A stretch of 64,000 bases of DNA from Burkholderiales bacterium. Its GTDB lineage: Bacteria > Pseudomonadota > Gammaproteobacteria > Burkholderiales > Casimicrobiaceae. Every line of letters starts with the position of its first letter. Positions within the stretch are counted from its first letter, which is position 1. This document shows positions 586 to 16,732 of the stretch, piece by piece. A program made the translations under genes and the position numbers. The stretch covers positions 22,007-86,006 of the forward strand of contig JAEUPL010000004.1 in NCBI GenBank assembly GCA_016790165.1, read 5' to 3'. Under the pieces are notes generated by a model. It saw nothing but the letters and a program-made list of their open reading frames with translations, did not search any database and was not told where the DNA came from.

Positions 586-924
586 ATGACCCGCTTGATC
601 GAGTACGTGCCTGTCTGTGGATGGTCCGCCTTCGACCGCAAGGACGCGTTCACCAAAGCGCTTCATGCCAAGCTGCCGGAAAGCGACTGGCACTACCAGT
701 GGCAGTATCGCAACTTTGTCGAGGTCACCGAGCTGTGGGAGTCGCTGCGGGACGCTAGCAGTATGGTTACCCATCTCAATATCAACCAGTTCGTGGACGA
801 GCGATTCGTCTACCTCGCGACCCAGGGGGCTGCCGCCACCTCAATTCTGGATTCACTCGCCGCCGAGTTTGGACTCGTTCGCTCGGTCCGCATCGAGCCA
901 GACGCTGCGGCAGGCGATGCGTGA
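586..924 (+). CDS. hypothetical protein, 112 aa
   Basis: A short soluble protein beginning MTRLIEYVPVCGWSAFD, with a GAGAAAG purine stretch just upstream as a possible ribosome binding site. It has no signal peptide, membrane segment or recognised motif. It contains several aromatic residues (HYQWQYRNF). The stop overlaps the GTG that opens the beta-lactamase reading frame at 921, and the DUF4262 remnant ends 41 nt upstream. I do not recognise a family. Its codon use and lack of in-frame stops support a real gene. Confidence 0.6.
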   Translation: MTRLIEYVPVCGWSAFDRKDAFTKALHAKLPESDWHYQWQYRNFVEVTELWESLRDASSMVTHLNINQFVDERFVYLATQGAAATSILDSLAAEFGLVRSVRIEPDAAAGDA

Positions 925-956
925 ATCGAGCGGGTGAGCCGCGACTTTCCACGCCC

Positions 957-1811
957 ATGACCCCACGCCTCGTATGCGATATTCATCGCATCACAGTTCC
1001 AGCGAGCGCAAGCGTGACAAAACAACTCTGGGCCGCATTCGCAGCGTGCATCCTTTCCACCCTCGCTGTTGCTGCCGATAGCATGGTCGACAAACCCGAG
1101 TGGGGCAAATACTTCGCTGATGCAGGCGTGACGGGAACGATCGTGGTGGTGGACGAGCGCAAGGCGCCTGCGGCGACGTTGGTGTTCAACCGCGAGCGGG
1201 CGGCGCGCCGCTATGCGCCAGCGTCCACCTACAAAATTCCGCACACACTGTTTGCGCTGGATTCCGGCGCTGTGACCGATGAGTTTCAGGTGTTTGCGTG
1301 GGACGGCGTGAAGCGGACCTTCGCGGGCCACAATCAGGACCAGACGCTGCGCTCGGCGATGCGTTACTCCACGTTGTGGGTCTACGAGCGGTTTGCCAAG
1401 GCGATTGGCGAGCCGAAGGCGCGTGCATATTTGCGCAGTATCGACTACGGCAACGCCGACCCCACGACCCGCCAGGGTGCGTACTGGGTGGATGGCAACC
1501 TGCGCATCTCGGCGCTGGAGCAGGTGGCGTTTCTGCGCAAGCTGTATCGCAACGCTTTGCCGTTCAAACTGGAGCATCAGCGGCTGCTGAAGGATGTGCT
1601 GATCAAGCAGGCGACGTCGGACTGGATTTTGCGCGCGAAGACCGGTTGGGAAGGCAAATACGGTTGGTGGGTCGGCTGGGTCGAGCAAAACGACGGGGCC
1701 GTGTTCTTCGCGCTGAACATCGACACGCCACGCCGCTTTGACGATCTGCCCAAGCGCGAGCAAATCGTGCGTGCGGTGCTGAAGTCGATGGACTTGCTGG
1801 AGGCCGAATAG
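957..1811 (+). CDS. class D (OXA-type) beta-lactamase
   Basis: A periplasmic serine beta-lactamase that would hydrolyse beta-lactams through a carbamylated-lysine mechanism. Numbered from the ATG at 957, the active-site S-x-x-K is STYK at 90-93, the Y-G-N box is at 154-156, and K-T-G is at 218-220, followed by YGWWVGWV as in OXA enzymes. The second-motif serine is present (RYSTLWVYE), but the usual S-x-V reads S-T-L. The reading frame opens at a GTG at 921. A GTG at 1014 would give the cleanest signal peptide (MTKQLWAAFAACILSTLAVAA), so the true start may be downstream of 957. Length fits chromosomal OXA enzymes. No resistance transposon or integron signature flanks it, so it is probably a resident gene. 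Confidence 0.88.
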   Translation: MTPRLVCDIHRITVPASASVTKQLWAAFAACILSTLAVAADSMVDKPEWGKYFADAGVTGTIVVVDERKAPAATLVFNRERAARRYAPASTYKIPHTLFALDSGAVTDEFQVFAWDGVKRTFAGHNQDQTLRSAMRYSTLWVYERFAKAIGEPKARAYLRSIDYGNADPTTRQGAYWVDGNLRISALEQVAFLRKLYRNALPFKLEHQRLLKDVLIKQATSDWILRAKTGWEGKYGWWVGWVEQNDGAVFFALNIDTPRRFDDLPKREQIVRAVLKSMDLLEAE

Positions 1812-3376: not shown

Positions 3377-3558
3377 GGGCCGGCTACCAAACCTTGGAGC
3401 AATTGCCGTCCGGTCCGTGACGTGATGCGCGCCTCGCCGACCGATTTCCTCGCAGAAACACGGCAGCGATGATCTCTTAAGCTCACCTTAATGTTCGCCC
3501 ACTAATGTTCACCCCGCACTGTGCAAGAGGCACGGTGTTTGTGCGGAGATCAACAGGT

Positions 3559-5760
3559 ATGGTTACGTTGGGTGAAGCAGTGGTCGGCATGAGACGTTGG
3601 CTCATGCGCTGTGTGTTGAGCCGTGGGGCGCAGCGCGGGGTCGCAGCGCTGGGCACGCTGGCATTGAGTACGTGCGTGCTGGGAATCAAGACCGATCATG
3701 TCGAGGTTGATCTCGTCGCGGAAAAGGCGGCGCTGACGGTCGGTTCGCAGTGGATCGGCATTCGCGTTCGGCACCAGCCGGGCTGGCACACATACTGGAC
3801 GAATCCTGGCGACGCGGGCTACGCCATGCGGCTCAGCTGGACGTTGCCGTCCGGTGTCACCGCGAGTGACATTCGCTGGCCGGCGCCTCGTCGTATTCCG
3901 ACGGGTGACAGTGCGTCGCCCGCAATCAATTTTGGTTACAAGGGCGACACGTTGCTGCCGGTGGTCCTGCAGGTCGAACCTTCTGCTCTGGCTGCTGCGG
4001 GCGACAAGCCCATCAAGATCGGATTGCACGCCGAGTGGCTGGTGTGCCGTGACATATGTGTGCCGGAAGAGGGCGACATCACGCTGGCCTTGAGTCCCAC
4101 ACGGGGCGGAGATGCTGTGCCCGACGCCACGCACGCTCCGCTGTTTGCGGCGGCCCGCGCCCGCCTGCCCGAGGCAAAACCGGCGTGGAAAGCCGTCGCC
4201 AGCGTCGACGGTGCGCGCCTGCAACTCAATGTCACGTTGCCCCCGGGCGAACGTGTTCCTGCATCGTTCGAGGTCTTTCCTGTGGCCGAAGGCGTGCTCG
4301 ATCCGACGGTGCACAAGACGTTTCGCACCGCCGATGGCATCAGCTCCCAGCTCAAGCTTATGGACGGGAAACGGCCCGACGCACCGCTGCAATTCGTGGT
4401 TGTTGGCGCGACGGCCGACGGCAAGCCGGTCGTCGCGTCGGTGCAGGCGGCCCTCGGGGCGGCCGGATTGTCGCCCACCGCGCAGTCGTTGGTGGACGCC
4501 AAAGGCAAGTCGGACATGTCGGCGTGGTCGGCGATTGCCCTGGCGTTTCTCGGCGGTTTGATCCTCAACCTGATGCCGTGTGTATTCCCCGTCCTGTCGC
4601 TCAAGATTCTGGGCTTCGCGCAGCACGCCGGTCAAGGCGAGGAGGGACGCTCCGCGTTGCGCGCGCATGGTACTGCCTACGCGGTGGGTGTGCTCGTTTC
4701 ATTCCTGTTGCTGGCCGCAGTGCTGCTTGGTCTGCGCCAGGGGGGGGCCGCCGTGGGCTGGGGGTTTCACCTCCAATCGCCCGTGGTGGTGTGGGTCCTG
4801 GCGGTTGTGTTCTGCCTAATCGCACTGAACCTGGCGGGCTTGTTCGAATTTGGCCAGTTCGCGCCATCTTCCGTGCTGTCGTTTCAGGCGAAGAATCCAT
4901 TGTTTGACGCTTTCGTCAGCGGCGTGATCGCCGTCGTCGCGGCGAGTCCGTGCTCCGCCCCGTTCATGGGGGCGGCACTCGGTTTCGCTGTGGCGCAGAG
5001 CAATTTCACTGCGCTTGCGGTGTTTGCCGCGCTCGGCGTGGGCATGGCACTGCCGTACGTGTTGCTGGCGAGCTTTCCGGCGTGGATCGAGCGTTTGCCG
5101 CGTCCCGGCTTGTGGATGGTGCAACTCAAGCAGGCACTGGCCTTCCCGATGTTCGCAACCGTGGTCTGGCTGATTTGGGTGCTGGCACAGCAGGGCGGGC
5201 TGGACACTGCGGTGATCGGACTCTTTGCGCTGGTGGTGTTGTCGCTCGGTGCCTGGCTGGCGGGCATTGGTCGTCGCTTCTCCGCAGCGGTTGGTTTGGC
5301 GACGGGGCTGCTGGCTGTCGCCGCGGGCTGGCCCGCCGCAGCTGTCAATACCGCGGTGGCCGCGCGGTCTGCCAGCACCGGGCCGAACGGTCCGGTTGTG
5401 GCGACCACTGCCGCCGGCAAAGAGGTATGGCAGGCGTGGACGCCAGAACGCGTGAAGGAGCTGCTGACTGAAGGCAAGCCAGTGTTCGTCGACTTCACTG
5501 CGGCTTGGTGCGTGAGCTGTCAGGCCAATAAACGCCTGGTGCTGGCAAGGACTGACATCGCCTCCGAATTCGCGGGCAAGGAGGTCGTACTGTTGCGCGC
5601 TGACTGGACTAACCGCGACGAGCGCATCACGCGTGTGCTCAATGAGCTTGGCCGCACGGGTGTGCCGGCCTACGCACTCTACGCACCGGGCCGCCCGGTG
5701 CAACTGTTGCCAGAGCTGCTGACGACAGCAGCTGTGCGCGACGCGATCAGTACGCTGTAA
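3559..5760 (+). CDS. DsbD/ScsB-like thiol:disulfide interchange protein
   Basis: An inner-membrane protein that moves electrons from cytoplasmic thioredoxin to periplasmic partners. From the start at 3559 (733 aa) it has: an N-terminal periplasmic DsbD-alpha-like domain with the motif WLVCRDICVPEEG; a multi-helix membrane domain with the conserved cysteines C341 (NLMPCVFPVLSLK) and C465 (ASPCSAPFMGAALG); and a C-terminal thioredoxin domain with C651-V-S-C654 (FTAAWCVSCQ). The architecture matches ScsB-like DsbD proteins of betaproteobacteria. The frame opens at an ATG at 3505; 3559 is preferred because GGAG lies about 11 nt upstream, and 3589 is also possible. It heads a same-strand run that includes a TlpA-like thioredoxin, a plausible electron recipient. 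Confidence 0.88.
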   Translation: MVTLGEAVVGMRRWLMRCVLSRGAQRGVAALGTLALSTCVLGIKTDHVEVDLVAEKAALTVGSQWIGIRVRHQPGWHTYWTNPGDAGYAMRLSWTLPSGVTASDIRWPAPRRIPTGDSASPAINFGYKGDTLLPVVLQVEPSALAAAGDKPIKIGLHAEWLVCRDICVPEEGDITLALSPTRGGDAVPDATHAPLFAAARARLPEAKPAWKAVASVDGARLQLNVTLPPGERVPASFEVFPVAEGVLDPTVHKTFRTADGISSQLKLMDGKRPDAPLQFVVVGATADGKPVVASVQAALGAAGLSPTAQSLVDAKGKSDMSAWSAIALAFLGGLILNLMPCVFPVLSLKILGFAQHAGQGEEGRSALRAHGTAYAVGVLVSFLLLAAVLLGLRQGGAAVGWGFHLQSPVVVWVLAVVFCLIALNLAGLFEFGQFAPSSVLSFQAKNPLFDAFVSGVIAVVAASPCSAPFMGAALGFAVAQSNFTALAVFAALGVGMALPYVLLASFPAWIERLPRPGLWMVQLKQALAFPMFATVVWLIWVLAQQGGLDTAVIGLFALVVLSLGAWLAGIGRRFSAAVGLATGLLAVAAGWPAAAVNTAVAARSASTGPNGPVVATTAAGKEVWQAWTPERVKELLTEGKPVFVDFTAAWCVSCQANKRLVLARTDIASEFAGKEVVLLRADWTNRDERITRVLNELGRTGVPAYALYAPGRPVQLLPELLTTAAVRDAISTL

Positions 5761-5822
5761 GCGACGGCTGCAATCACGCTTTCAACAATACCGGGGACTT
5801 TGAATTGATATGGAGAACCGCC

Positions 5823-8687
5823 ATGACGCAATGGTTTGACGAACACGCAAGCGAGGCCACCACGTGGCGACGGTTGGCTGCAATAATCTCTGTTGCGACC
5901 CTCGGCTTGCTGCTTGCAGCACCGTCGTTCGCACAGAATGCCGTGAACGGCAAGACGTTGTACAACGCAATTCTGGTCTCCGGCCAACTGTCTTGCTCGA
6001 ACGGCCAGTGCCACGGGCCGAACCCGGCATCGCGGATCAACAAAATCCAAAATGGCACGAGCGCGAGCGTCATTGCATCCGCGATCAATCCGGGTGGGGT
6101 CTCGCAAATGGCCTTTTTGCGCGGGGTGCTGACGAGCGCGCAACTGTCGGATCTCGCCGCCTACATCGCCAATCCCGCAGCGGGCAATGGCAGCCCTGCT
6201 GCGAGCGTGTCGGCGACGTCCCTCACGTATGCATCAACCAACGTAGGCTCAACGGCGGCCGCCCAGACGGTGACTCTGTCCAATACCGGTACCGCAGCGC
6301 TGACGCTCGGCGCAACGACGATTTCCGGTGACTTTGCTGTCAGTAGCAATACGTGCACGTCTGGCAGCAGCGTGGCGGCGGGGGGCAGTTGTTCGGTGAG
6401 TGTGACATTCACACCGACTGCCGCCGGTGCGCGTAGCGGTTCGCTCACCATCGCGCACAACGCGACGCCGTCCACCAGTACGGTGACGTTGTCCGGTACG
6501 GGCGCCGCCGTCGGATCGCCGGCTGCGAGTGTCTCACCCGCCCAGTTGTCGTTTGGCTCCACAACGGTGGGCGCCACGGCGGCCGCGCAAAGCGTGACGT
6601 TGACCAATACCGGGAACGCGGCGTTGGTGCTGGGGACGACCTCGATCGCCGGCGCTGATTTTGCCGTCGGGAGCAACAGCTGTACGTCGGGGAGTAGCCT
6701 CGCAGCCGGTGCCAGTTGCAACGTGTCGGTGAGCTTTACGCCTTCTGCCCCGGGTGCCCGCAGTGCGACGCTGACCATCACGCACAACGCCTCACCCGCG
6801 AGCAGCAGTGTGACGCTATCTGGTACCGGCGCCGCAGCTGGCGCACCGGCGGCCAGCGTATCGCCCACGCAGTTGACGTTTGGATCCACCACGGTAGGTA
6901 CCACGGCGGCCGCACAAACGGTGACGCTGACCAACACCGGCAATGCAGCGTTGGTGCTTGGTACGACGGCGATTGCTGGCAGCGACTTCGCGGTTGGCAG
7001 TAACACTTGCACCTCGGGTAGCAGTCTCGCGGCATCGGCCAGTTGCACGATTTCTGTGTCGTTCGCGCCAACGGCAGCGGGAAGTCGCAGCGGCACACTC
7101 ACGATCGCCCACAACGCGACGCCGGCGAGCAGCTCAGTGTCGTTGACTGGAACCGGGGTGCCGGCAGGCTCGCCCGGAGCATCGTTGTCGGCGTTGCAGC
7201 TGACGTTTTCATCCACCAACGTCGGAGCAACGTCTGGAACACAGAGCGTCACCCTGGCCAACTCTGGCACGGCACCCTTGCTGCTGGGCGCGACCAACCT
7301 CTCGGGCCCTGACTTCGCCATCAGCAGCAACACCTGCACGTTGGGCACCAGCCTAGCAGCGGCTGGATCGTGCACTGTATCAATCACGTTTACGCCCACG
7401 GCGGCTGGTGCTCGCAACGGCACGCTGACCATCTCGCACAATGCAACACCATCCACCAGCACCGTTGCCTTAAGCGGTACAGGGGCCACGGTGGTTCAGG
7501 GCGCGCCGTCCGCCAGCCTCTCGGCGGCGGCGCTGACCTTTGCCTCGACCAACGTGGGCAGCACCTCGGCCAGTCAGACGGTGACGTTGACCAACACTGG
7601 CTCTGCGGCGTTGAACATCAGTGGCTTCGTGCTGTCTGGCAGTGACTTCTCTGCGACGGTGACCTCGTGTCTGGCCGGCACCACGGTTGCGCCGCAAGCG
7701 CAGTGCAGCGTCAGCGTAGTATTTACGCCGACCGCAATGGGTAGCCGCTCTGGCACAGTGACCATCACACATAACGCAACGCCAGCGACAACCACGCTTG
7801 CGTTGAGTGGCACGGGCGCGCAGACGACGGTCACCGCACCAGCGGCGACCGTAAACGCAACAACGCTGGCCTTCGGCGACACGCCTGTGGGCGTGCAGTC
7901 GCCGTCGCAGGCGGTCACCATTACCAACTCAGGGACGGCACCATTGATAGTGTCGTCGACCCACCTCGCTCCGGCGACCCTGCGCATCGCTGCGAGCACC
8001 TGTGTGCTGCCACAAACGCTGGCCGTGGGTGCAAGCTGTACGTTGATGATCGCGTTCGCTCCGAGTACGACCGGGGCGGTGACGGGTTCGTTGACGATTG
8101 GTCATAACGCGACGCCATCGACCAATACCGTCGCGTTGACGGGCAACGGAATCGCGACCAGCACCGGCTTGCCTGCGACGCGAACAATGGTTGAATACGT
8201 TTATTCGCCGCTCGACTACTACTTCATCACATCGCGACCCGCCGAACAGGCGCTGCTTGATGGCATCGCGGGGTTTCAGCGGACCGGGGCAACGTTCCTG
8301 GTTTACGTGAGCCAGCAGGGCGACATGCGCGGTATCAACCGCATCTACTTTGACAAGGTCGCCAAGGCCAGTTCGCGCGGATCGCACTTCTACACGTTGA
8401 TCGATCTCGACATGGCACTGCTGATGAATCTCAATCCGATGCATACGACGGCGCCGGCAATGCCGCAATACGAGGGCGTCGATGCGTTTGCCTACCCGCC
8501 CCTTGTGTCGGGCGTGGGCGGCTCGTGCGCGTCGGGTTTGGTGCCGGTGTATCGGCTGTTCCGCGGGGCAGCGCGCTTCCCGGACGACCCAAATCACCGA
8601 TATACAACGAGCCTGACCGTTTACAACCAGTTTGTCGCCAGCGGTTGGGATGGCGAAGGGGTTAATTTCTGCGTACCGGCGCAATAG
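5823..8687 (+). CDS. secreted cytochrome c / choice-of-anchor D repeat protein
   Basis: A 954-residue exported protein with three parts. After a signal peptide ending near APSFAQ there is a short cytochrome-c-like domain with C58-SNGQ-C63-H64, a C-x4-C-H heme motif instead of the usual C-x2-C-H, and a possible axial M96 (SQMAFLRG). Six tandem choice-of-anchor-D (Ig-like) repeats of about 109-111 residues follow, each beginning near P-A-A-S-V-S and containing NVGST, VTLTNTG, DFAV, C-S-V-S-V-F-T-P and LTIAHNATP. The C-terminal domain (EYVYSPLDYYFITSR, ALLD, SSRGSHFYTL, MNLNP, NHRYTTS, GWDGEGVNFCVP) is also found, truncated, in the metalloprotease at 61379. GGAGA at 5812-5816 supports the start. 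Surface or periplasmic electron carriage is inferred only. Confidence 0.8.
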   Translation: MTQWFDEHASEATTWRRLAAIISVATLGLLLAAPSFAQNAVNGKTLYNAILVSGQLSCSNGQCHGPNPASRINKIQNGTSASVIASAINPGGVSQMAFLRGVLTSAQLSDLAAYIANPAAGNGSPAASVSATSLTYASTNVGSTAAAQTVTLSNTGTAALTLGATTISGDFAVSSNTCTSGSSVAAGGSCSVSVTFTPTAAGARSGSLTIAHNATPSTSTVTLSGTGAAVGSPAASVSPAQLSFGSTTVGATAAAQSVTLTNTGNAALVLGTTSIAGADFAVGSNSCTSGSSLAAGASCNVSVSFTPSAPGARSATLTITHNASPASSSVTLSGTGAAAGAPAASVSPTQLTFGSTTVGTTAAAQTVTLTNTGNAALVLGTTAIAGSDFAVGSNTCTSGSSLAASASCTISVSFAPTAAGSRSGTLTIAHNATPASSSVSLTGTGVPAGSPGASLSALQLTFSSTNVGATSGTQSVTLANSGTAPLLLGATNLSGPDFAISSNTCTLGTSLAAAGSCTVSITFTPTAAGARNGTLTISHNATPSTSTVALSGTGATVVQGAPSASLSAAALTFASTNVGSTSASQTVTLTNTGSAALNISGFVLSGSDFSATVTSCLAGTTVAPQAQCSVSVVFTPTAMGSRSGTVTITHNATPATTTLALSGTGAQTTVTAPAATVNATTLAFGDTPVGVQSPSQAVTITNSGTAPLIVSSTHLAPATLRIAASTCVLPQTLAVGASCTLMIAFAPSTTGAVTGSLTIGHNATPSTNTVALTGNGIATSTGLPATRTMVEYVYSPLDYYFITSRPAEQALLDGIAGFQRTGATFLVYVSQQGDMRGINRIYFDKVAKASSRGSHFYTLIDLDMALLMNLNPMHTTAPAMPQYEGVDAFAYPPLVSGVGGSCASGLVPVYRLFRGAARFPDDPNHRYTTSLTVYNQFVASGWDGEGVNFCVPAQ
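6193..8165 (+). repeat. six tandem ~327-333 bp repeats (protein-level)
   Basis: Internal repeats of the choice-of-anchor-D protein begin near 6193, 6519, 6846, 7173, 7506 and 7839. The first four are the most alike in DNA and share phrases such as GTGACGTTGTC and CACAACGC. The last two have diverged more. The spacing suggests unit duplication with the possibility of recombination-driven change in repeat number. Confidence 0.75.
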
Positions 8688-8700
8688 AGGAGAAATCAGC

Positions 8701-9240
8701 ATGAACTCAATGATCTACGACCGGAGCAAGCCCCGGCAGCGGTTGCGCTTCGCCACTGTCGTCTGCATCCTCGCATCGGCATTCGCGTTTGAATCTGCGG
8801 CAGTCGATGTCGGCGCGCCGGCACCGGACGTCTCGCTACCGGCACTGACCGGCAAGTTTGAATCATCGCAAGCGCGTGGCAAAGTGCTCTACGTCGACTT
8901 CTGGGCGTCGTGGTGTGTGCCGTGCCGGCAGTCGTTTCCGTGGATGAACGAGATGCAGGCAAAATATGCGGCGCGTGGACTGCAGATCGTTGCGATCAAT
9001 GTCGACGCCAAGCGCGCGGATGCAGAACGCTTCCTTGGGCAGGTGGAATCAAAGGTGACGATTGCGTTCGACGCGAATGGCGACACGCCCAAGCGCTTTG
9101 GCGTCAAAGGCATGCCGAGCTCGTACCTGATTGCGGGTGACGGGCGTCTGATCAAGGCCCACAGCGGTTTCCGCGATAGCGACAAGGCAGCCCTCGAAGC
9201 GGCGATCGTCGCCGCGCTGGATGCGACCCAACGAAAGTAG
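8701..9240 (+). CDS. TlpA-like periplasmic thioredoxin
   Basis: A 179-residue secreted or membrane-anchored thioredoxin-fold protein. It has an N-terminal hydrophobic segment (FATVVCILASAFAF), the active site W-C72-V-P-C75 (FWASWCVPCRQSFPWMNEM), and the cis-proline loop GMPSSYLI. A strong GAGGAG ribosome binding site sits at 8690-8695 before the ATG at 8701. It follows the previous gene by 13 nt and precedes the DUF4266 gene by 4 nt, so these are one operon. It probably keeps a periplasmic thiol reduced, with the Cys-Gly-Cys tail of the next gene product as the obvious candidate substrate and the DsbD-like protein upstream as the likely electron source. Confidence 0.88.
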   Translation: MNSMIYDRSKPRQRLRFATVVCILASAFAFESAAVDVGAPAPDVSLPALTGKFESSQARGKVLYVDFWASWCVPCRQSFPWMNEMQAKYAARGLQIVAINVDAKRADAERFLGQVESKVTIAFDANGDTPKRFGVKGMPSSYLIAGDGRLIKAHSGFRDSDKAALEAAIVAALDATQRK

Positions 9241-9244
9241 AACC

Positions 9245-9499
9245 ATGAAAACAACACCATGCAGGCACCGTCGCGTGCGCCATGCCGTGATGGTCGTGTG
9301 GCTTGCGGGGTCGTTCGCGACGCTCTCGGGTTGCGCGATCCAACCACCTCAAGCGTGGGAAAAAGGCAACCTCGCGCGCAAGGAAATGACGATGGACAGT
9401 GACGCGCTGGATCAGGCGTTTACGCAGCACATCTACTTCAGCAAAGAAAGCGCCTCGGGCGGCTACGGTGTAGGCGGAGGTGGCTGTGGTTGCAACTGA
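9245..9499 (+). CDS. DUF4266 lipoprotein with C-terminal Gly/Cys tail
   Basis: An 84-residue small lipoprotein. The signal peptide ends at the lipobox L27-S-G-C30. The mature part carries the DUF4266 signature (AWEKGNLARKEM, then HIYFSKESASGGYG) and ends in GVGGGGCGCN. The start at 9245 gives the shortest complete signal peptide. The family typically sits between a TlpA-like thioredoxin and a DUF3570 gene, exactly as here. The role is unknown. The invariant-looking Gly-rich tail with two cysteines suggests metal or cofactor binding, or a modified peptide terminus (inference). Confidence 0.88.
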   Translation: MKTTPCRHRRVRHAVMVVWLAGSFATLSGCAIQPPQAWEKGNLARKEMTMDSDALDQAFTQHIYFSKESASGGYGVGGGGCGCN

Positions 9500-10664
9500 C
9501 GAAATTGCCGTCGGGGCCTGCCGCGGGCACGACGAAACGACCACCGCTGCGCCCGGACTCGGTGCGGTGACGCTGGCTGCGCTCGCGTTGCCGGGTGTGA
9601 TGTGCGCACCTGCCGCAGCGGCGTCGGCGCCGGAGGAGGGCGTGATCTCGCTGAAAGTACTGGGGTACCGCGATTCGCAACCCGGATTGGACCGGATCAA
9701 GGTGACGGCCCCCTCATTGCATCTGCTCGCGCCCATTGCAGGAAACTGGTCGGTCGAGGTATCGGCCGTTCAGGACAACATTTCGGGTGCTTCGCCACGC
9801 TGGCACAGCAATATCTCCGGCGCGTCCCGCATGCACGACTTGCGCAATGCGGGTGATGTCAAGCTCACGCGATATTTCGAACGTGCGGCGGTCGGCGTGC
9901 GCTTTGCGACGTCCAACGAGCATGACTATCGATCCAATGCGTTGGCAGTCGACGCGCGCTTCTCGAGCGCAGACAACAACACGACCTGGAGCGTTGGAGT
10001 CGGTGGCTCGCGTGACACGATCAACCCGGTCAACGGGATTGTCGAGAACGAATCCAAGCGTGTTGAAGAGTACATGGTGGGCGTCACGCAGGCGCTCAGC
10101 AAGAACGATATCGCGCAGTTCAACCTCTCTCACGTGCGCGCGCGGGGCTACCTGAACGACCCGTACAAACTGGTTGATGAGCGGCCGCGTTTCCGCAATC
10201 AGACCATTGCCTTGCTGCGCTGGAATCACTTCCTCGAAGGGTCAGGGACAACACTCCGCAGCAGCTATCGTTACTACAGCGACAGCTATGGAGTGCGTGC
10301 GCATACGCTGAGCGGCGAATGGGTGGTGCCGATCGGTGAGCGTTTCCGGGTGACACCGACGGCGCGTTACTACACGCAGCGCCGAGCCGATTTTTATTTC
10401 GACCCAGTCTACGATCCGGTGTACGGCGAGCCTTACCCTGTGGGCAACCCCACGTACTACTCGGCTGACACCCGGCTTTCGTCATTCGGCGCGTTGACCT
10501 TTGGTGCCAAGTTCGAGTGGATGTTCGCGCCAAAGTGGATCTTCGATCTGAAGTACGAACGCTACGGGCAACGCTCAGCCTGGTGGTTCGGCGGTGGCGG
10601 TTCGCCAGGGATCTCGGCGTTCCGTGCGGACTTCGCGCAAATCGGTATCAGTCGCCGGTTCTAA
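9480..10664 (+). CDS. DUF3570 outer-membrane beta-barrel-like protein
   Basis: A 394-residue protein read from a GTG at 9480, overlapping the DUF4266 gene by 20 nt, which implies translational coupling. After an Ala-rich export signal (VTLAALALPGVMCAPAAAA) come alternating strands with aromatic girdles (SYRYYSDSYG, ARYYTQRRADFYFDP, LKYERYGQRSAWW) and a terminal phenylalanine (ISRRF), as in outer-membrane barrels. It matches DUF3570. Function is not established; the constant pairing with DUF4266 suggests it exports or displays that lipoprotein. Confidence 0.85.
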   Translation: MAVVATDEIAVGACRGHDETTTAAPGLGAVTLAALALPGVMCAPAAAASAPEEGVISLKVLGYRDSQPGLDRIKVTAPSLHLLAPIAGNWSVEVSAVQDNISGASPRWHSNISGASRMHDLRNAGDVKLTRYFERAAVGVRFATSNEHDYRSNALAVDARFSSADNNTTWSVGVGGSRDTINPVNGIVENESKRVEEYMVGVTQALSKNDIAQFNLSHVRARGYLNDPYKLVDERPRFRNQTIALLRWNHFLEGSGTTLRSSYRYYSDSYGVRAHTLSGEWVVPIGERFRVTPTARYYTQRRADFYFDPVYDPVYGEPYPVGNPTYYSADTRLSSFGALTFGAKFEWMFAPKWIFDLKYERYGQRSAWWFGGGGSPGISAFRADFAQIGISRRF

Positions 10665-10723
10665 TGGATCCGTTCGGGCGGACGTTGCGCCGCCTGTCGC
10701 CACGCTGCTGACGGTATTTTCAG

Positions 10724-11401
10724 GTGCGCACACTGATTGTCGAGGACGACCCGTCTTTTGCGGCGGGGGTCATGGCTTTTTTGCAGAGTGAAGGTTTCGC
10801 TGTGGACGTGGCGCCGACGCTCGCCAACGCGCGCATTCGCCTGCGCGCCGAGCGCTATGGTCTCGTTGTGCTCGACATGGGGCTGCCCGATGGCTCCGGG
10901 GCGACGCTACTGACCTGGTTGCGCGGCGCCGCACCGGACTCGCTGGCGACGGCATCGTCCACGCCCGTTCTCATATTGTCCGCTCGCGCTGATATTGATG
11001 ACGTGGTCGCCGGTCTCGACGCGGGGAGCGACGACTACGTCGTGAAACCCGTGGACCAGCGCGCCCTGGCGGCCCGTATTCGCAGCTTGCTGCGGCGCGC
11101 TGAGGGGCGGAGCAGTGCCGAGATCGTGATTGGCGAACTGGTGCTTGATTGCACGCGCCGACAGGCGACACTCGCCGGCTTGTCGCTGGACCTGTCGGCT
11201 CGCGAGTGGGCGGTTCTGCGAGCGCTCGCAGCGAACCCCGGAGCGGTGCTCTCGAAGGCGGATCTTGAGGCGGCGCTGTATAGTGACGGCAACGCGGTGG
11301 AGAGTAACGCCATCGAAGTGCACATCCATCATCTGCGCCGCAAGATTGGCGAGAAGACGATCAGAACGCTTCGCGGCGCGGGCTACGCGCTGCGGGTTTG
11401 A
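10724..11401 (+). CDS. OmpR/PhoB-type response regulator
   Basis: A 225-residue two-component regulator. The receiver domain has the acidic pair D8-D9 (LIVEDDPSF), the phosphoacceptor D51 (LVVLDMGLPDGSG) and the KP motif (DDYVVKPVDQ). A winged-helix DNA-binding domain follows (LDLSAREWAVLRALAANPG, then IEVHIHHLRRKIG, LRGAGYAL). The start is a GTG at 10724. It lies 59 nt after the DUF3570 gene and 39 nt before the sensor kinase gene, so it may control the redox genes upstream. Confidence 0.92.
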   Translation: MRTLIVEDDPSFAAGVMAFLQSEGFAVDVAPTLANARIRLRAERYGLVVLDMGLPDGSGATLLTWLRGAAPDSLATASSTPVLILSARADIDDVVAGLDAGSDDYVVKPVDQRALAARIRSLLRRAEGRSSAEIVIGELVLDCTRRQATLAGLSLDLSAREWAVLRALAANPGAVLSKADLEAALYSDGNAVESNAIEVHIHHLRRKIGEKTIRTLRGAGYALRV

Positions 11402-11440
11402 TCGGCATACCTCACTACACCACTTTAACCAGCTAACGTC

Positions 11441-12820
11441 GTGCGATCGCGACTTTCCATCAAGATGCGGCTGATTCTTGGCGTCGCCATGAGTCTCCTA
11501 GTCATGTTTGCGCTGTTGATCTACTTGGTGCGACAAAAGGCAGTGGTGGAGGCGCAGGAGTTGCTGGAGGGCAATCTCGTTGGGACCTCACGTGTCGCGG
11601 TGCAAATCGCCAATTCGGCGCCGTTTTCTATGGCACCGGCGCCTGCACTGCTGGCTCGTGACCGGTATGAATCTCCGTTGGTCGTGCAGTTCTGGAGCAG
11701 TCGCGGCGAACTGCTGTCGCAGGTCGGTGTGATTTCCGGGGCGACCACCCCACCCCCCAAGAGTGGCTTCGACGGCCATGTGATCGACGGCCGACCATGG
11801 CGCTCGTATTCCGCACTGAACCAGAGCGGGCTGGTGTGGGTGCGGACCCTGTTGCCGCAAGACGCTGGCGCGTTGATGGTCGCGGACTTGACCTACCACT
11901 TTGTCAAAGTGGCCGTGATCGCTGCCATTGTGCTGATCGGCGGCATCTGGATGTTTATGTGGTACCTGTTGCGGCCGCTGAGCGTGTTTTCAGCGGTGTT
12001 GTCGAAAACTCCGGTGAACCGTATTGGCGCGGTCGACATGCAGCCGCGCGCGGGTGAATTGCGGGCAGTCGTTGACGCGTTGAACGACGTCATGGGGCGC
12101 GTAAGGGACGAGCGCGAATTGGAGCGCGCGTTTATTGCCGACGCCGCACATGAACTGCGGACACCGCTCGCGGGCATTCAATTGCATGCGCAAAATGCGC
12201 AGCGCGAAGATGACCCGGAGCGCCTGCGCCGTGCCTTGCAGTACGTCGAGGAGGGGTGTCTCCGCGCCACACATATTGTGAGTCAATTGCTCGGGCTCGC
12301 TCAATATGATGCAGTCAAGCGGCTACCGATGGTGCCGGTGTGTGCAGAGTCGCTGGTGCGTCGTGCGCTGCCATTTGTGCTGCCCGGCGCGGATCAGCGG
12401 AACGTGGAAGTTGTCAGCGACATTGATGCCAATGTCACTATCCTCGGTGACGAGGCCGCGCTCGATGTCGTGCTGCGCAATCTGCTGCTCAACGCGATCC
12501 AGTTTTCGCCAGATGGCGGTGTGGTACGGATCGAAGTGCGTGAGCTAGGGAAGTACGTCACCCTCTCGGTGCTGGATCAGGGGCCCGGTGTGCCGCGCGA
12601 GGCTCGGCGGGAAATCTTCGAACGTTTCGCCCGCTTGCCAGACGCGCGGCCCGGCGGCTCCGGACTCGGCCTCGCGATCGTCCGCCGCATTCTTTCTTTG
12701 CATCGAGCGCAAATTCACGTCAACAATCAGTCGGGTGGTGGTGCCGCCTTCACGGTACGTTTGCGCAACGCGTCATCACGCGGGCCGCATTCGCTATTGC
12801 ATTCGCGGCTCGGGCGATAG
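11441..12820 (+). CDS. membrane sensor histidine kinase
   Basis: A 459-residue EnvZ/QseC-like kinase. Two transmembrane helices (VAMSLLVMFALLIYLV near residue 20 and VAVIAAIVLIGGIWMFMWYLL near 155-170) bracket a periplasmic sensor of about 120 residues. The H box is AAH237ELRTPLAG, with a HAMP-like linker before it. The ATP-binding domain has the N box (LLLNAIQFSP), G1 (DQGPGVPRE) and G2 (GGSGLGLAIVRRI). The start is a GTG at 11441. It partners the response regulator just upstream. The signal is unknown; envelope redox or metal status would fit the neighbouring genes. Confidence 0.92.
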   Translation: MRSRLSIKMRLILGVAMSLLVMFALLIYLVRQKAVVEAQELLEGNLVGTSRVAVQIANSAPFSMAPAPALLARDRYESPLVVQFWSSRGELLSQVGVISGATTPPPKSGFDGHVIDGRPWRSYSALNQSGLVWVRTLLPQDAGALMVADLTYHFVKVAVIAAIVLIGGIWMFMWYLLRPLSVFSAVLSKTPVNRIGAVDMQPRAGELRAVVDALNDVMGRVRDERELERAFIADAAHELRTPLAGIQLHAQNAQREDDPERLRRALQYVEEGCLRATHIVSQLLGLAQYDAVKRLPMVPVCAESLVRRALPFVLPGADQRNVEVVSDIDANVTILGDEAALDVVLRNLLLNAIQFSPDGGVVRIEVRELGKYVTLSVLDQGPGVPREARREIFERFARLPDARPGGSGLGLAIVRRILSLHRAQIHVNNQSGGGAAFTVRLRNASSRGPHSLLHSRLGR

Positions 12821-13914: not shown

Positions 13915-15090
13915 ATGCCATTCTTCCGCGATCTGTCCCTCTCCGCCGTTGTCACAGGCTTCGTTGTCGTGCTCGTCGGGTTCACCAGCACCGGTGCACT
14001 GGTGTTTCAGGCGGCTCAGTCACTGGGTGCCAGCCAGGCGCAGATCAACTCGTGGATCTGGGCGCTCGGCCTTGGCATGGGGCTCGCCACCATCCTGCCG
14101 TCGCTCTACTTCAAAAAGCCGGTCGTCGCCGCGTGGTCCACGCCCGGCGCCGCGCTCATCGCCACCAGCGCCTCCGGCGTGGTGGGCTTGACGATGGCGC
14201 AAGCGATTGGCGCTTTCGTGGTCTGTGCATTGCTGATCGTTCTGGCTGGAACCACACGGTTGTTCGAGCGCCTCATGAACCGCATTCCGGTGGCAATCGC
14301 CTCGGCGATGCTGGCCGGCGTGCTGCTGCGCTTCGGAATTGAGGCGTTTGTCGGCCTAAAGTCGGCGCCGGTCATGGTGCTCGCGATGTTCGTCGCGCAC
14401 CTGCTTGGCAAGCGCTTCTGGCCGCGCTACGGTGTCGTGGGCGTGCTCGCCGTTGGGGTGGCCTGTGCGCTGGCGAGCAACTCGCTCAAGTGGGCGGTGG
14501 TGCGGGTCGAATGGGCGACACCGGTCTGGGTGACGCCTGAGTTTTCGCTGACTGCGATCATTGGGCTTGCACTGCCGCTGTTTCTGGTCACGATGGCCTC
14601 GCAAAACATGCCCGGGGTGGCTGTCATGCGGGCCTCCGGCTATGACACGCCGATATCGCCGGTGATCACCACCACGGGCGCGATTAACCTGATCTTCGCG
14701 CCGTTTGGTGGTTACACGCTCAACCTGGCCGCAATCACCGCGGCGATCGCCATGGGACCCGAGGCGCATGAGGACCGCGACAAGCGCTACGCCGCCGCCG
14801 TCATGGCAGGCGTGTTCTATTGCCTGATCGGGCTCGTCGGCGCGATCGTTGGTGGCCTGTTCGCGGCGTTCCCGAGGGAACTGATCATCGCCCTCGCCGG
14901 GCTGGCGCTAATGAGCACCATCGGCAACGGCCTCGCTACGGCCACCCGGGACGAGAGCGACCGCGAGGCCGCGATCATCACCTTCCTCGTCACCGCGTCC
15001 GGCGTTTCGCTCGCTGGCATAGGAAGTGCATTCTGGGGACTGGTGGCCGGGGTGCTGGCGATGGTGGTGTTGAAGTGGCGCAAGGTGTGA
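13915..15090 (+). CDS. benE: BenE-family benzoate/H+ symporter-like permease
   Basis: A 391-residue polytopic inner-membrane protein of the BenE family, with about 12 hydrophobic segments. Characteristic stretches are TGFVVVLVGFTSTGALVFQAA near the N-terminus, KPVVAAWSTPGAALIATS, the SQNMPGVAVMRASGY loop and the LIFAPFGGYTLNLAAITAAI helix pair. The family imports benzoate in some species. Here no benzoate catabolism genes are nearby and the stop overlaps the likely start of ureD, so the protein is co-expressed with urease and its substrate is uncertain. Confidence 0.85.
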   Translation: MPFFRDLSLSAVVTGFVVVLVGFTSTGALVFQAAQSLGASQAQINSWIWALGLGMGLATILPSLYFKKPVVAAWSTPGAALIATSASGVVGLTMAQAIGAFVVCALLIVLAGTTRLFERLMNRIPVAIASAMLAGVLLRFGIEAFVGLKSAPVMVLAMFVAHLLGKRFWPRYGVVGVLAVGVACALASNSLKWAVVRVEWATPVWVTPEFSLTAIIGLALPLFLVTMASQNMPGVAVMRASGYDTPISPVITTTGAINLIFAPFGGYTLNLAAITAAIAMGPEAHEDRDKRYAAAVMAGVFYCLIGLVGAIVGGLFAAFPRELIIALAGLALMSTIGNGLATATRDESDREAAIITFLVTASGVSLAGIGSAFWGLVAGVLAMVVLKWRKV

Positions 15091-15956
15091 CTGACGCAGC
15101 CGACACGGGGTGGTCGGCCCGACTGAAACTACGATTTGAAGCGACGGAGGTCGCAGGCCGCGCGCGCACCATTTTGTGCGAACGCAGCCACGTTGGCCCA
15201 CTGCGTGTGTTGAAGCCACTCTATCCCGAGGGCGACGCGTTCTGCCACGCCGTTCTGGTGCATCCGCCGGGCGGCATTGTGGAGGGCGACAGCCTGTCCG
15301 TCAGCGTTGCGGTGGATGCGGGTGCCAACGCCGTCATCACCACGCCCGGGGCGCAAAAGTGGTACCGCTCCGCCGGGCGCGTGGCGGTGGCCGATACGCA
15401 AATCGCTGTTGCCAATGGTGCGTCGCTGGAATGGATGCCGCAGGAAGCGATGGCTTACGACGGTGCACGCGCGCGGCAGCGACTCACCATCGACCTTGCA
15501 CCGACGGCGCGCTTTTTCGGTTGGGAAGTGCTTTGCCTGGGGCGCACCGCGCGCGGCGAACGCTTTGCCGCTGGAGAGTTCCAGCAGCGCATCCGATTGG
15601 TGCGGACCGGTAAGAGTGCACCTTTATGGAGCGAGTCGATGCATCTCATTGGGAATGACCCATTGATGTCGTCGCCGCTTGGTTTGCGCGGATTGCCGGT
15701 GATGGCGACGGCGTGGATTGCACTGGGCGGCGAGGCGGCGGGTGACAACGCCACCGCGGCGTTGGCGACGGTCCGCGAAGTTCTGGCCGAGGAGCCGCTG
15801 GCGGCGGCTTCGGCACCCGAAGAACAACTGATCGTGGTCAAGATGATCGGCGACGCGCCGGAGGCGGTACGCAACTTGCTGATTCGGGTGTGGAAAAACA
15901 CACGATTGCAGCTGTTTGAGCGGGAACCGGTGCTGCCACGCATCTGGAGCACGTAG
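15087..15956 (+). CDS. ureD: urease accessory protein UreD
   Basis: A 289-residue chaperone that binds apo-urease and, with UreF and UreG, delivers nickel. Family stretches include the GWSARLKLRFE start, TILCERSHVGPLRVLKPLYPEG, HPPGGIVEGDSL, TTPGAQKWYRS, WMPQEAMAYDGA and CLGRTARGERF. The GTG at 15087 overlaps the upstream TGA stop; a GTG at 15075 is the alternative. The frame is open further upstream, but that region is the transporter gene. It is the first gene of the urease set and is probably coupled to the transporter. Confidence 0.92.
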   Translation: MTDAADTGWSARLKLRFEATEVAGRARTILCERSHVGPLRVLKPLYPEGDAFCHAVLVHPPGGIVEGDSLSVSVAVDAGANAVITTPGAQKWYRSAGRVAVADTQIAVANGASLEWMPQEAMAYDGARARQRLTIDLAPTARFFGWEVLCLGRTARGERFAAGEFQQRIRLVRTGKSAPLWSESMHLIGNDPLMSSPLGLRGLPVMATAWIALGGEAAGDNATAALATVREVLAEEPLAAASAPEEQLIVVKMIGDAPEAVRNLLIRVWKNTRLQLFEREPVLPRIWST

Positions 15957-16014
15957 CGCGACGGGCTGATTCTGCAGAGGGATACGAGGGACTGAAACCA
16001 ATGGATGAAGTAAC

Positions 16015-16317
16015 GTGGACCTGAGCCCAAGAGAGAAAGACAAACTGCTGATCTTCACGGCCGCACTGCTGGCCGAGCGCCGGCGCGCCCGCGGGCTGAA
16101 ACTCAACCACCCGGAGGCGATCGCTTTCATCACCGCCGCAGTGCTCGAAGGAGCGCGTGACGGCAAGACAGTGGCGGAGCTGATGAGTTTCGGCACGACG
16201 ATCCTTACCCGTGACGACGTGATGGAAGGGGTGCCGGAAATGATTCCCGACGTTCAGGTCGAAGCCACGTTTCCCGACGGGACGAAGCTCGTGACGGTCC
16301 ATTTCCCAATTCAGTGA
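16015..16317 (+). CDS. ureA: urease gamma subunit UreA
   Basis: A 100-residue structural subunit of urease, full length for the family. It begins at a GTG ([15 protein letters not shown]) and contains [40 protein letters not shown] and [18 protein letters not shown]. It assembles with UreB and UreC into the cytoplasmic nickel enzyme that hydrolyses urea to ammonia and carbamate. It lies 58 nt after ureD and 7 nt before ureB. Confidence 0.96.
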
Positions 16318-16324
16318 GTGCGGC

Positions 16325-16728
16325 ATGATTCCAGGTGAAATCCTCACACTCGATGGTGACATCGAACTCAACAGCAAGCGCAGGACACACCAGATCGCCG
16401 TGTCGAATACCGGTGATCGCCCGATTCAGGTCGGCTCGCACTATCACTTCTTCGAAACCAACAACGCATTGCAGTTTGACCGGGTGGTCGCCCGTGGCAT
16501 GCGGCTCAACATAGCCGCGGGAACCGCCGTGCGCTTTGAGCCCGGCCAATCGCGCACCGTCGAACTGGTAGATCTCGCGGGCAGCCGCACGGTGTTTGGC
16601 TTCCAGGGGCGAGTGATGGGGCCGCTGGTGCGAGTAGCGAAAGCGGCGAAAGCGAAAGGAGCGGCAGCGACCACCACGAAAAGGACCGCCAGCAGGAAGC
16701 TGACAACAAAGAGAACCGGGGGCAAGCG

Positions 16729-16732
<4 letters not shown>
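16325..16732 (+). CDS. ureB: urease beta subunit UreB with basic tail
   Basis: The beta subunit core ([64 protein letters not shown]) is complete by about residue 100. A further ~35-residue tail rich in Lys, Ala, Thr and Arg ([15 protein letters not shown], then [16 protein letters not shown]) makes it 135 residues, against about 101 normally. The tail overlaps the ureC start by 4 nt (ATGA). It may be a flexible or nucleic-acid- or membrane-contacting extension. Confidence 0.95.

What the first reader, a model, noticed from the sequence alone, without database searches (positions are those of the whole stretch)
3559..12820. Seven-gene redox locus: DsbD-like, cytochrome c/choice-of-anchor-D, TlpA, DUF4266, DUF3570 and a two-component system
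All genes are on one strand with short gaps or overlaps. A membrane electron donor (DsbD-like), a periplasmic thioredoxin, a lipoprotein ending GGGGCGCN, an outer-membrane protein and a dedicated regulator pair look like a system that makes, reduces and displays a cysteine-containing lipoprotein. The TlpA-DUF4266-DUF3570 order is a recurring set of unknown function. The neighbouring secreted cytochrome and the two-component system may be extra parts of it. This is the best candidate in the window for an undescribed system.
Basis: partly seen in the sequence, partly recalled or inferred. Interest (0 to 1): 0.72.

Follow-up and report, generated by a model that had tools for sequence, protein, structure and literature searches.

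The report
Thiol-fed flavin barrel, ApbE elsewhere
This gene cluster most likely builds a chain that carries electrons from inside a bacterium to flavins on a barrel in its outer membrane; the basic system was described in 2021, but this copy has an added cytochrome protein and regulator pair, and its flavin-attaching enzyme is encoded far away in the genome.

Summary
The seven genes are real. The core (DsbD, TlpA, DUF4266, DUF3570) is the "DsbD system" of Meheust et al. 2021, in which ApbE attaches FMN to DUF3570; it is not undescribed. The window DUF3570 has both attachment motifs, but the cluster has no ApbE. The assembly's single ApbE lies on another contig, between a paralogue of the cytochrome c/choice-of-anchor-D protein (CcAD) and a PhoH-like gene. 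L067 and L113 carry the TlpA-DUF4266-DUF3570 trio at that spot, and L109 carries the window operon with ApbE, so two operons seem to have lost complementary parts.

New here, as far as searched: CcAD is a frequent operon member in near relatives and is fused to TlpA in 14 ORFs; DUF3570 models as a 16-strand barrel with both FMN motifs in an inferred extracellular loop; DUF3570-linked ApbEs are a leaderless subfamily with a metal-ligand Asp replaced by Gly, suggesting FMN attachment before export; DUF4266 ends in CGC plus one residue in 140 of 140 rows, on a disordered tail. Best explanation: thioredoxin, DsbD, TlpA, DUF4266 CGC arm, FMN on DUF3570, outside acceptor. Direction, acceptor and the cytochrome's role are inferred.

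The parts
3505..5760 (+). DsbD: inner-membrane thiol electron donor; cysteine pairs C181/C185, C359/C483 and C669/C672 of the ORF
   Evidence: Pfam DsbD_N 2.6e-18, DsbD_TM 4e-16, Thioredoxin_7 2.7e-21; cysteines listed (pairing by eye); 63% identical to the L109 DsbD over 453 aa
5805..8687 (+). CcAD: leader, cytochrome c-like domain, six choice-of-anchor-D domains, DUF5648
   Evidence: choice_anch_D E 5e-119 with six stretches, DUF5648 1.8e-7, domain layout by own profiles
5994..6014 (+). haem-type motif CSNGQCH (C-X4-CH)
   Evidence: the aligned domains of many relatives read CXXCH, others C-X4-CH
8632..9240 (+). TlpA/ResA-like periplasmic thioredoxin (ATG at 8701 is a likelier start); WCVPC at 8911-8925
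   Evidence: Redoxin 1.6e-21, ResA 4.8e-28 but under that model's cut-off, motif
9221..9499 (+). DUF4266 lipoprotein, lipobox Cys at 9332-9334
   Evidence: PF14086 4.5e-22; the only copy found in the assembly
9485..9496 (+). C-terminal Cys-Gly-Cys-Asn of DUF4266
   Evidence: CGC plus one residue at the very end in 140 of 140 rows
9480..10664 (+). DUF3570 outer-membrane barrel, flavin carrier (real start uncertain, leader present)
   Evidence: PF12094 6.1e-58; model with 16 strands, pLDDT 91.6; Foldseek matches to outer-membrane barrels
9783..9794 (+). first flavinylation motif SGAS
   Evidence: motif defined in PMC8238504
9816..9827 (+). second flavinylation motif SGAS
   Evidence: lost in several relatives, e.g. 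L068-L070, L079, L084, L086
10665..10723 (.). 59-base gap where L109 has ApbE
10724..11401 (+). OmpR-type response regulator
   Evidence: Response_reg 6.7e-23, Trans_reg_C 7.4e-19; L109 homologue 55%
11441..12820 (+). sensor histidine kinase
   Evidence: HisKA 8.4e-15, HATPase_c 1.4e-24; L109 homologue 59%

Best explanation
A variant of the DsbD/DUF3570 flavinylation system. Electrons from cytosolic thioredoxin pass through DsbD to the periplasmic TlpA-like thioredoxin (inferred from the families), then to the C-terminal Cys-Gly-Cys of the lipoprotein DUF4266, whose floppy Gly-rich tail works as a swinging dithiol arm (inferred), then to FMN bound covalently to the SGAS motifs of DUF3570, an outer-membrane barrel (motifs seen; barrel predicted; flavinylation shown only for a relative in PMC8238504). 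The flavin loop faces the outside or hangs into the barrel from that side, so the final acceptor is most likely extracellular (inferred). CcAD is a scaffold and possible further electron carrier tied to TlpA, as natural fusions show; its electron partner is unknown. FMN is attached by a leaderless, hence probably cytosolic, ApbE encoded in trans on contig C32, after complementary losses in two related operons. The two-component pair probably regulates the operon (inferred).
For: Family matches and the 2021 paper. Both SGAS motifs present. One ApbE, one DUF3570, no FMN_bind, no DUF2271 found in the assembly. Synteny: C32 equals the L067/L113 locus without the trio, the window equals the L109 operon without ApbE; trees agree (DUF3570 with L107-L110 95/97, ApbE with L067/L113 87/90). 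Window DUF3570 keeps 52 of 52 and the C32 ApbE 34 of 34 positions that are at least 97% conserved among the rows compared. Single-contig genome G435 has one DUF3570 and one ApbE of the same subfamily 0.82 Mb apart. Barrel model and topology. CcAD-TlpA fusions, 14 ORFs. ApbE subfamily. Invariant CGC end, disordered tail.
Against: No direct evidence of FMN on this protein. The direction of electron flow is not shown. The flavin loop is the least confident part of the model (pLDDT 54 for mature residues 61-70). CcAD and DsbD are absent beside the core in most of the 60 loci from the order and class samples, so they are not essential to the core. The second SGAS motif is missing in several relatives. 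The own assembly is 92% complete, so a second ApbE or DUF3570 could be missing from it. The ApbE tree support for the origin of the C32 copy is moderate. Two loci with the leaderless ApbE lack an exact motif (L085 AGAT, L096 SGSS).
Confidence: 0.55

Rival explanations
1. One reading: the purpose is a displayed cysteine lipoprotein. The CGCN tail of DUF4266 binds a metal or carries a modification, TlpA and DsbD keep it reduced, DUF3570 is the barrel that displays it, and flavin is secondary.
For: The CGC end is more constant (140 of 140) than the flavin motif (22 of 61 rows in the order and class samples lack [ST]GA[ST] at the aligned site). The trio persists with an [ST]SAS motif and without a neighbouring leaderless ApbE.
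Against: In the window's class the motif goes with the leaderless ApbE (32 with both, 20 with neither, 7 and 2 mixed), and the split genomes still keep both genes. No modifying enzyme other than ApbE recurs beside the core.
Confidence: 0.2
2. Same parts, opposite flow: DUF3570 and DUF4266 take electrons from an outside donor and pass them through CcAD to periplasmic cytochromes or oxidases; DsbD only keeps thiols repaired.
For: A cytochrome c-like domain is fused to the thioredoxin in 14 ORFs. The 2021 paper notes that flow could in principle be reversed.
Against: DsbD is known to carry reducing power outward (established knowledge, also stated). CcAD is absent from most of the 60 broader loci.
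Confidence: 0.1
3. The window operon is decaying: with its ApbE gone, DUF3570 is no longer flavinylated and the C32 ApbE is a leftover.
For: ApbE is missing from the operon and the trio is missing at C32.
Against: Both survivors keep all highly conserved positions (52 of 52 and 34 of 34), and no other known kind of ApbE substrate was found in the assembly. G435 shows the same separation.
Confidence: 0.1

Closest known systems
DsbD-type flavinylation system (Meheust et al. 2021, PMC8238504; abstract, passages and section 12 seen)
   Same: DsbD, thioredoxin-like protein, DUF4266 with C-terminal CXC, DUF3570 with two [ST]GA[ST] motifs
   Different: ApbE not in the cluster; CcAD and a two-component pair added; barrel topology, leaderless ApbE subfamily and CcAD-TlpA fusions are not in the passages I saw
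Canonical ApbE/Ftp FMN transferases (E. coli, PMC4767422 section 18; review PMC12052999, passages)
   Same: Fold and most conserved motifs, His of the HILNP motif kept by eye
   Different: No leader; the metal-site Asp (E. coli D280) is Gly; Glu follows the Lys of GKGY
Cytosolic ApbE of Klebsiella pneumoniae (review PMC12052999, passages)
   Same: No signal peptide
   Different: Its substrate is a soluble fumarate reductase, not an exported barrel
Outer-membrane multihaem conduits such as MtrAB (recalled, no call)
   Same: Would move electrons across the outer membrane
   Different: Here a flavin barrel fed by thiols, no multihaem cytochrome in the operon
C-terminal redox arm of thioredoxin reductase (recalled, no call)
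   Same: A short flexible C-terminal tail with a redox pair next to the chain end
   Different: No relation in sequence claimed; DUF4266 is a lipoprotein without a flavin domain

Membership tests
DsbD-type flavinylation system | DsbD (PF02683) beside the core | tested here: met
   PF02683 4e-16 at 3505-5760
DsbD-type flavinylation system | DUF3570 with [ST]GA[ST] motifs | tested here: met
   PF12094 6.1e-58; SGAS twice
DsbD-type flavinylation system | DUF4266 with C-terminal CXC | tested here: met
   PF14086 4.5e-22, CGCN end
DsbD-type flavinylation system | thioredoxin-like protein (PF13899 in the paper) | tested here: met
   TlpA-like protein with Redoxin and Thioredoxin_8 matches, not PF13899; PF13899 matches the C-terminus of DsbD instead
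DsbD-type flavinylation system | ApbE in the cluster (typical, not universal, in the paper) | tested here: not met
   No ApbE in the operon; single ApbE on contig C32. Filed as a variant, not a standard member
DsbD-type flavinylation system | covalent FMN on DUF3570 | not testable with these tools
   Needs protein; shown for Chlorobium luteolum in PMC8238504
canonical exported ApbE (enzyme in trans) | signal peptide or lipobox | tested here: not met
   25 residues before the domain, maximum hydropathy 0.14
canonical exported ApbE (enzyme in trans) | metal-site-1 Asp (E. coli D280) | tested here: not met
   Gly in the C32 enzyme
outer-membrane beta-barrel | even-strand barrel with short inner turns, long outer loops, C-terminal Phe | tested here: met
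   Predicted 16 strands, Foldseek barrels at TM about 0.4-0.57, F at the C-terminus of all 16 rows of A1 or one residue before it; a prediction only
monohaem cytochrome c | CXXCH haem motif | tested here: not met
   CSNGQCH, C-X4-CH; haem binding itself not testable here

The most novel reading that the evidence does not exclude
A thiol-driven route of extracellular electron transfer: covalent FMN sits on the cell-surface face of a 16-strand outer-membrane barrel and is reduced by a swinging C-terminal Cys-Gly-Cys arm of a lipoprotein fed by TlpA and DsbD; the FMN is attached in the cytosol by a dedicated leaderless ApbE with a rebuilt metal site, and the flavin-bearing chain is then exported to the outer membrane.
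Probability: 0.27. Interest if true: 0.85.

Novelty: new variant of a known kind. Interest (0 to 1): 0.6.

Why it matters
The 2021 paper left the function of DUF3570 systems uncertain. A barrel with its flavins in an outer loop, fed by dithiols, would be a cell-surface electron outlet that needs no multihaem cytochrome, and the core is common (90 of 369 genomes drawn from the class, 32 of 300 from the order have DUF4266). Flavin attached before export would change how covalent flavoproteins of the envelope are thought to be made. Genomes in which enzyme and substrate genes are split are a natural test that the two belong together.

Tried and rejected
Rejected: 'undescribed system'. Rejected: DsbD, cytochrome and regulator as universal parts. 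Rejected on the way: that loci with an [ST]SAS motif are flavin-free. One search found an ApbE in all 22 genomes tested (16 of the SAS type, 6 with the GA motif but no neighbouring ApbE); in 7 (G131, G264, G275, G335, G348, G350, G360) one lies about 10 to 22 kb from DUF4266. Left open: a special export signal in DUF3570 (LTxAALALPG-like leader seen; the simple pattern hit 46 of 145 rows). DUF4266 alone gave no confident fold. Literature: DUF1501 with DUF1800 gave two listings, not read; choice-of-anchor D with cytochrome and thioredoxin gave none; CXC motif gave two listings, not read. The ApbE of genus mate G669 sits near PepSY- and DUF2271-like ORFs (by eye) and has the canonical residues.

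Limits of the counts. The 80 named loci are the best of 574 confirmed relatives of this DUF3570, not an even sample, and some are the same genomes as G handles (for example L120=L070, L126=L069, L141=L068, L109=L230, L113=L232). The order sample is 29 loci from 27 of the 31 other genomes with a match; the class sample is 31 loci from 31 of the 90 genomes with a match, taken from near the top of the E-value list. Of the 112 aligned ApbE rows, 106 have Gly, 4 Asp or Glu and 2 a gap at the site; near-copies are among them. In one search the 16 Glu/Gly rows are mostly the same genes as in the first set; the 30 canonical rows are new. Four of those 30 had no leader by my measure: L209 (13 residues before the domain), L224 (1 residue), L225 (at a contig end) and L267 (just under the threshold). 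In one search two DUF3570 fragments (L081, L197) were dropped and the window was not counted. An earlier count (33, 7, 17, 7) included the window, the fragments and canonical ApbEs. The ApbE tree holds one very long branch (L227).
Full report
WHAT IS THERE. The seven genes are present as described, all on the + strand, with overlaps or short gaps. DsbD has cysteines where its three pairs are expected (pairing by eye); the TlpA-like protein has WCVPC; DUF4266 has a lipobox and ends GGGGCGCN; DUF3570 has two SGAS motifs 11 residues apart. The second protein has a cytochrome c-like domain with C-X4-CH, six choice-of-anchor-D domains and a DUF5648 C-terminus; I call it CcAD.

WHAT IT IS. The one paper in the library that holds the words DUF3570 or DUF4266 is Meheust et al. 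2021 (PMC8238504; abstract, passages and section 12 seen). It reports that DUF3570 of Chlorobium luteolum is flavinylated by its ApbE at two [ST]GA[ST] motifs, and that ApbE, DUF3570, a thioredoxin-like protein, DUF4266 and in some bacteria DsbD form clusters of uncertain function. The window trio plus DsbD is that system.

THE MISSING ENZYME. The operon has no ApbE. In the assembly (3.76 Mb, 92% complete) the searches found one ApbE, one DUF3570, no FMN_bind protein and no DUF2271. ApbE lies on contig C32 in the order XseA-DUF1800-DUF1501-CcAD-ApbE-PhoH (XseA and PhoH named by eye; DUF1800 and DUF1501), with 14 bases between CcAD and ApbE. In L067 (same genus) and L113 the same flanks hold CcAD-TlpA-DUF4266-DUF3570-ApbE, with about 2.3 kb more between DUF1501 and CcAD; L070 and L120 (one genome) show the order from DUF1800 to PhoH. 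L109 (the same place as L230) holds DsbD-CcAD-TlpA-DUF4266-DUF3570-ApbE-RR-HK, the window's operon plus ApbE. So the window genome looks like the remains of two operons: one lost ApbE, the other lost the trio. Trees agree: window DUF3570 with L107-L110 (95/97), C32 ApbE with L067 and L113 (87/90, moderate). Both survivors keep every position that is at least 97% conserved among the rows compared (52 of 52; 34 of 34). A second genus shows a split as well: single-contig genome G435 has one DUF3570 and one ApbE about 0.82 Mb apart, the latter of the same leaderless type and beside ORFs that I read by eye as glyA, nrdR, ribD and ribE; G478 of the same genus shows the same neighbourhood. In the window's genus 14 of 17 genomes have DUF3570 and 16 of 17 an ApbE.

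CO-OCCURRENCE (within 7 kb, same strand). 80 nearest named relatives: DUF4266 79, TlpA 79, ApbE 75, DsbD 53, CcAD 52, histidine kinase 4, response regulator 2. Order sample, 29 loci: DUF4266 29, TlpA 26, ApbE 26, any cytC match 9, CcAD 4, DsbD 1. Class sample, 31 loci: DUF4266 31, TlpA 29, ApbE 12, histidine kinase 3, response regulator 1, no CcAD, no DsbD. DUF4266 itself was found in 90 of 369 genomes drawn from the class and 32 of 300 from the order. In 14 ORFs (13 in the named loci, one in L093) a cytochrome domain, five choice-of-anchor-D domains and TlpA form one polypeptide, which ties the cytochrome/Ig array to the thioredoxin.

THE BARREL. AlphaFold on the mature window DUF3570 with 64 relatives gives 16 strands, pLDDT 91.6, pTM 0.87. 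Foldseek finds outer-membrane barrels such as PelBC, OmpG, FadL and BcsC, at modest TM-scores (0.57 or less by query length among the 50 rows shown). Loops after odd strands are 2, 14, 2, 9, 14, 4, 35 and 15 residues long, turns after even strands 2 to 5, so by the usual rule (recalled) the former face outward. Both SGAS motifs (mature residues 56-59 and 67-70) lie at the edge of or in the second outer loop, which has the lowest confidence. Positions at least 95% conserved are enriched in the outer half: 52 of 201 against 15 of 138, p 8e-4. This puts the flavins at the outer face or in the lumen near it; no coordinates or experiment were at hand.

THE ENZYME SUBFAMILY. ApbEs beside DUF3570 of the window's class have little or no room for a leader: of 106 Gly-type rows, 37 have at most 12 and 64 at most 25 residues before the domain in the longest possible ORF, and 3 exceed a hydropathy of 2.0 before the domain. 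All 106 have Gly where E. coli has D280, a metal-site-1 ligand (PMC4767422, section 18 read), and Glu in place of the Gly of GKGY; the 4 other complete rows have Gly there with Asp or Glu at the metal site, and hydrophobic leaders. A second set has 30 canonical Gly/Asp rows, 26 with a hydrophobic leader, and 16 Glu/Gly rows without one, most of these being repeats of the first set. Cytosolic ApbEs are known for a soluble fumarate reductase (review PMC12052999, passages). For an exported barrel I saw no report in the passages read or in the listings; PMC11334425 was seen in passages only.

TWO CLASSES. In 61 DUF3570 rows of the order and class samples: [ST]GA[ST] and a leaderless ApbE nearby 32; neither 20; motif only 7; enzyme only 2 (Fisher p 2e-8; related genomes, so not independent). 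The rows without motif mostly read [ST]SAS-ID, come mostly from outside the window's order and have other conserved neighbours, among them a protein found in 22 loci whose representative matches HZS_alpha. Four loci (L092, L193, L199, L208) have a canonical, leadered ApbE near such a DUF3570, and all 22 genomes tested have some ApbE, so absence of flavin there is not shown.

THE ARM. DUF4266 ends in CGC plus one residue in 140 of 140 rows (129 Asn, 8 Tyr, 2 Thr, 1 Ser). A lipobox was found in 131 of 140, none with Asp at +2, which fits outer-membrane sorting (the rule is recalled). Alone it has no confident fold (pLDDT 58) and residues 43-55 are below 50. I propose a dithiol arm between TlpA and FMN; a metal-binding tail is not excluded.

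VERDICT. A variant of a known system with several features that I did not find in print within the searches named. Shown: gene content, synteny, separated enzyme gene, motif and residue patterns, fusions. Inferred: direction of electrons, surface position of the flavin, cytosolic attachment, roles of the cytochrome and of the two-component pair.

Noticed in passing
L097, L099-L101, L104-L106, L190, L191, L201, L206 and others (DUF4266 side): A second DUF3570 class with [ST]SAS-ID in place of [ST]GA[ST]P, in a different gene set that includes an HZS_alpha-matching protein, an SH3/OMP-like protein and another OMP-like protein.
   Followed up: partly
L071:10166-12904, L072, L085, L088, L091, L094: DUF3570 proteins of about 900-1000 aa in which the barrel is followed by a further, unassigned C-terminal region of some 300 aa.
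   Followed up: no
L296 (G435) and L297 (G478): A leaderless ApbE beside ORFs that look like a riboflavin-synthesis cluster (glyA, nrdR, ribD, ribE, by eye), far from DUF3570.
   Followed up: partly
L006:3108-7483: DUF1800 and DUF1501 genes just upstream of the CcAD paralogue and ApbE; same order in L067, L070, L113 and L120. Possible further parts of the ancestral locus.
   Followed up: partly
window 9480-9620: DUF3570 leaders carry a rather constant, weakly charged LTxAALALPG-like stretch, unusual for a signal peptide.
   Followed up: partly
window 921-1811 and about 14800-16732: An ORF that looks like a class D beta-lactamase relative lies upstream, and urease-like genes (ureD, ureA, ureB) lie downstream (by eye).
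   Followed up: no
L227:5600-10335: In genus mate G669 an ApbE without DUF3570 lies beside PepSY-like and DUF2271-like ORFs, probably another flavinylation system (by eye).
   Followed up: no
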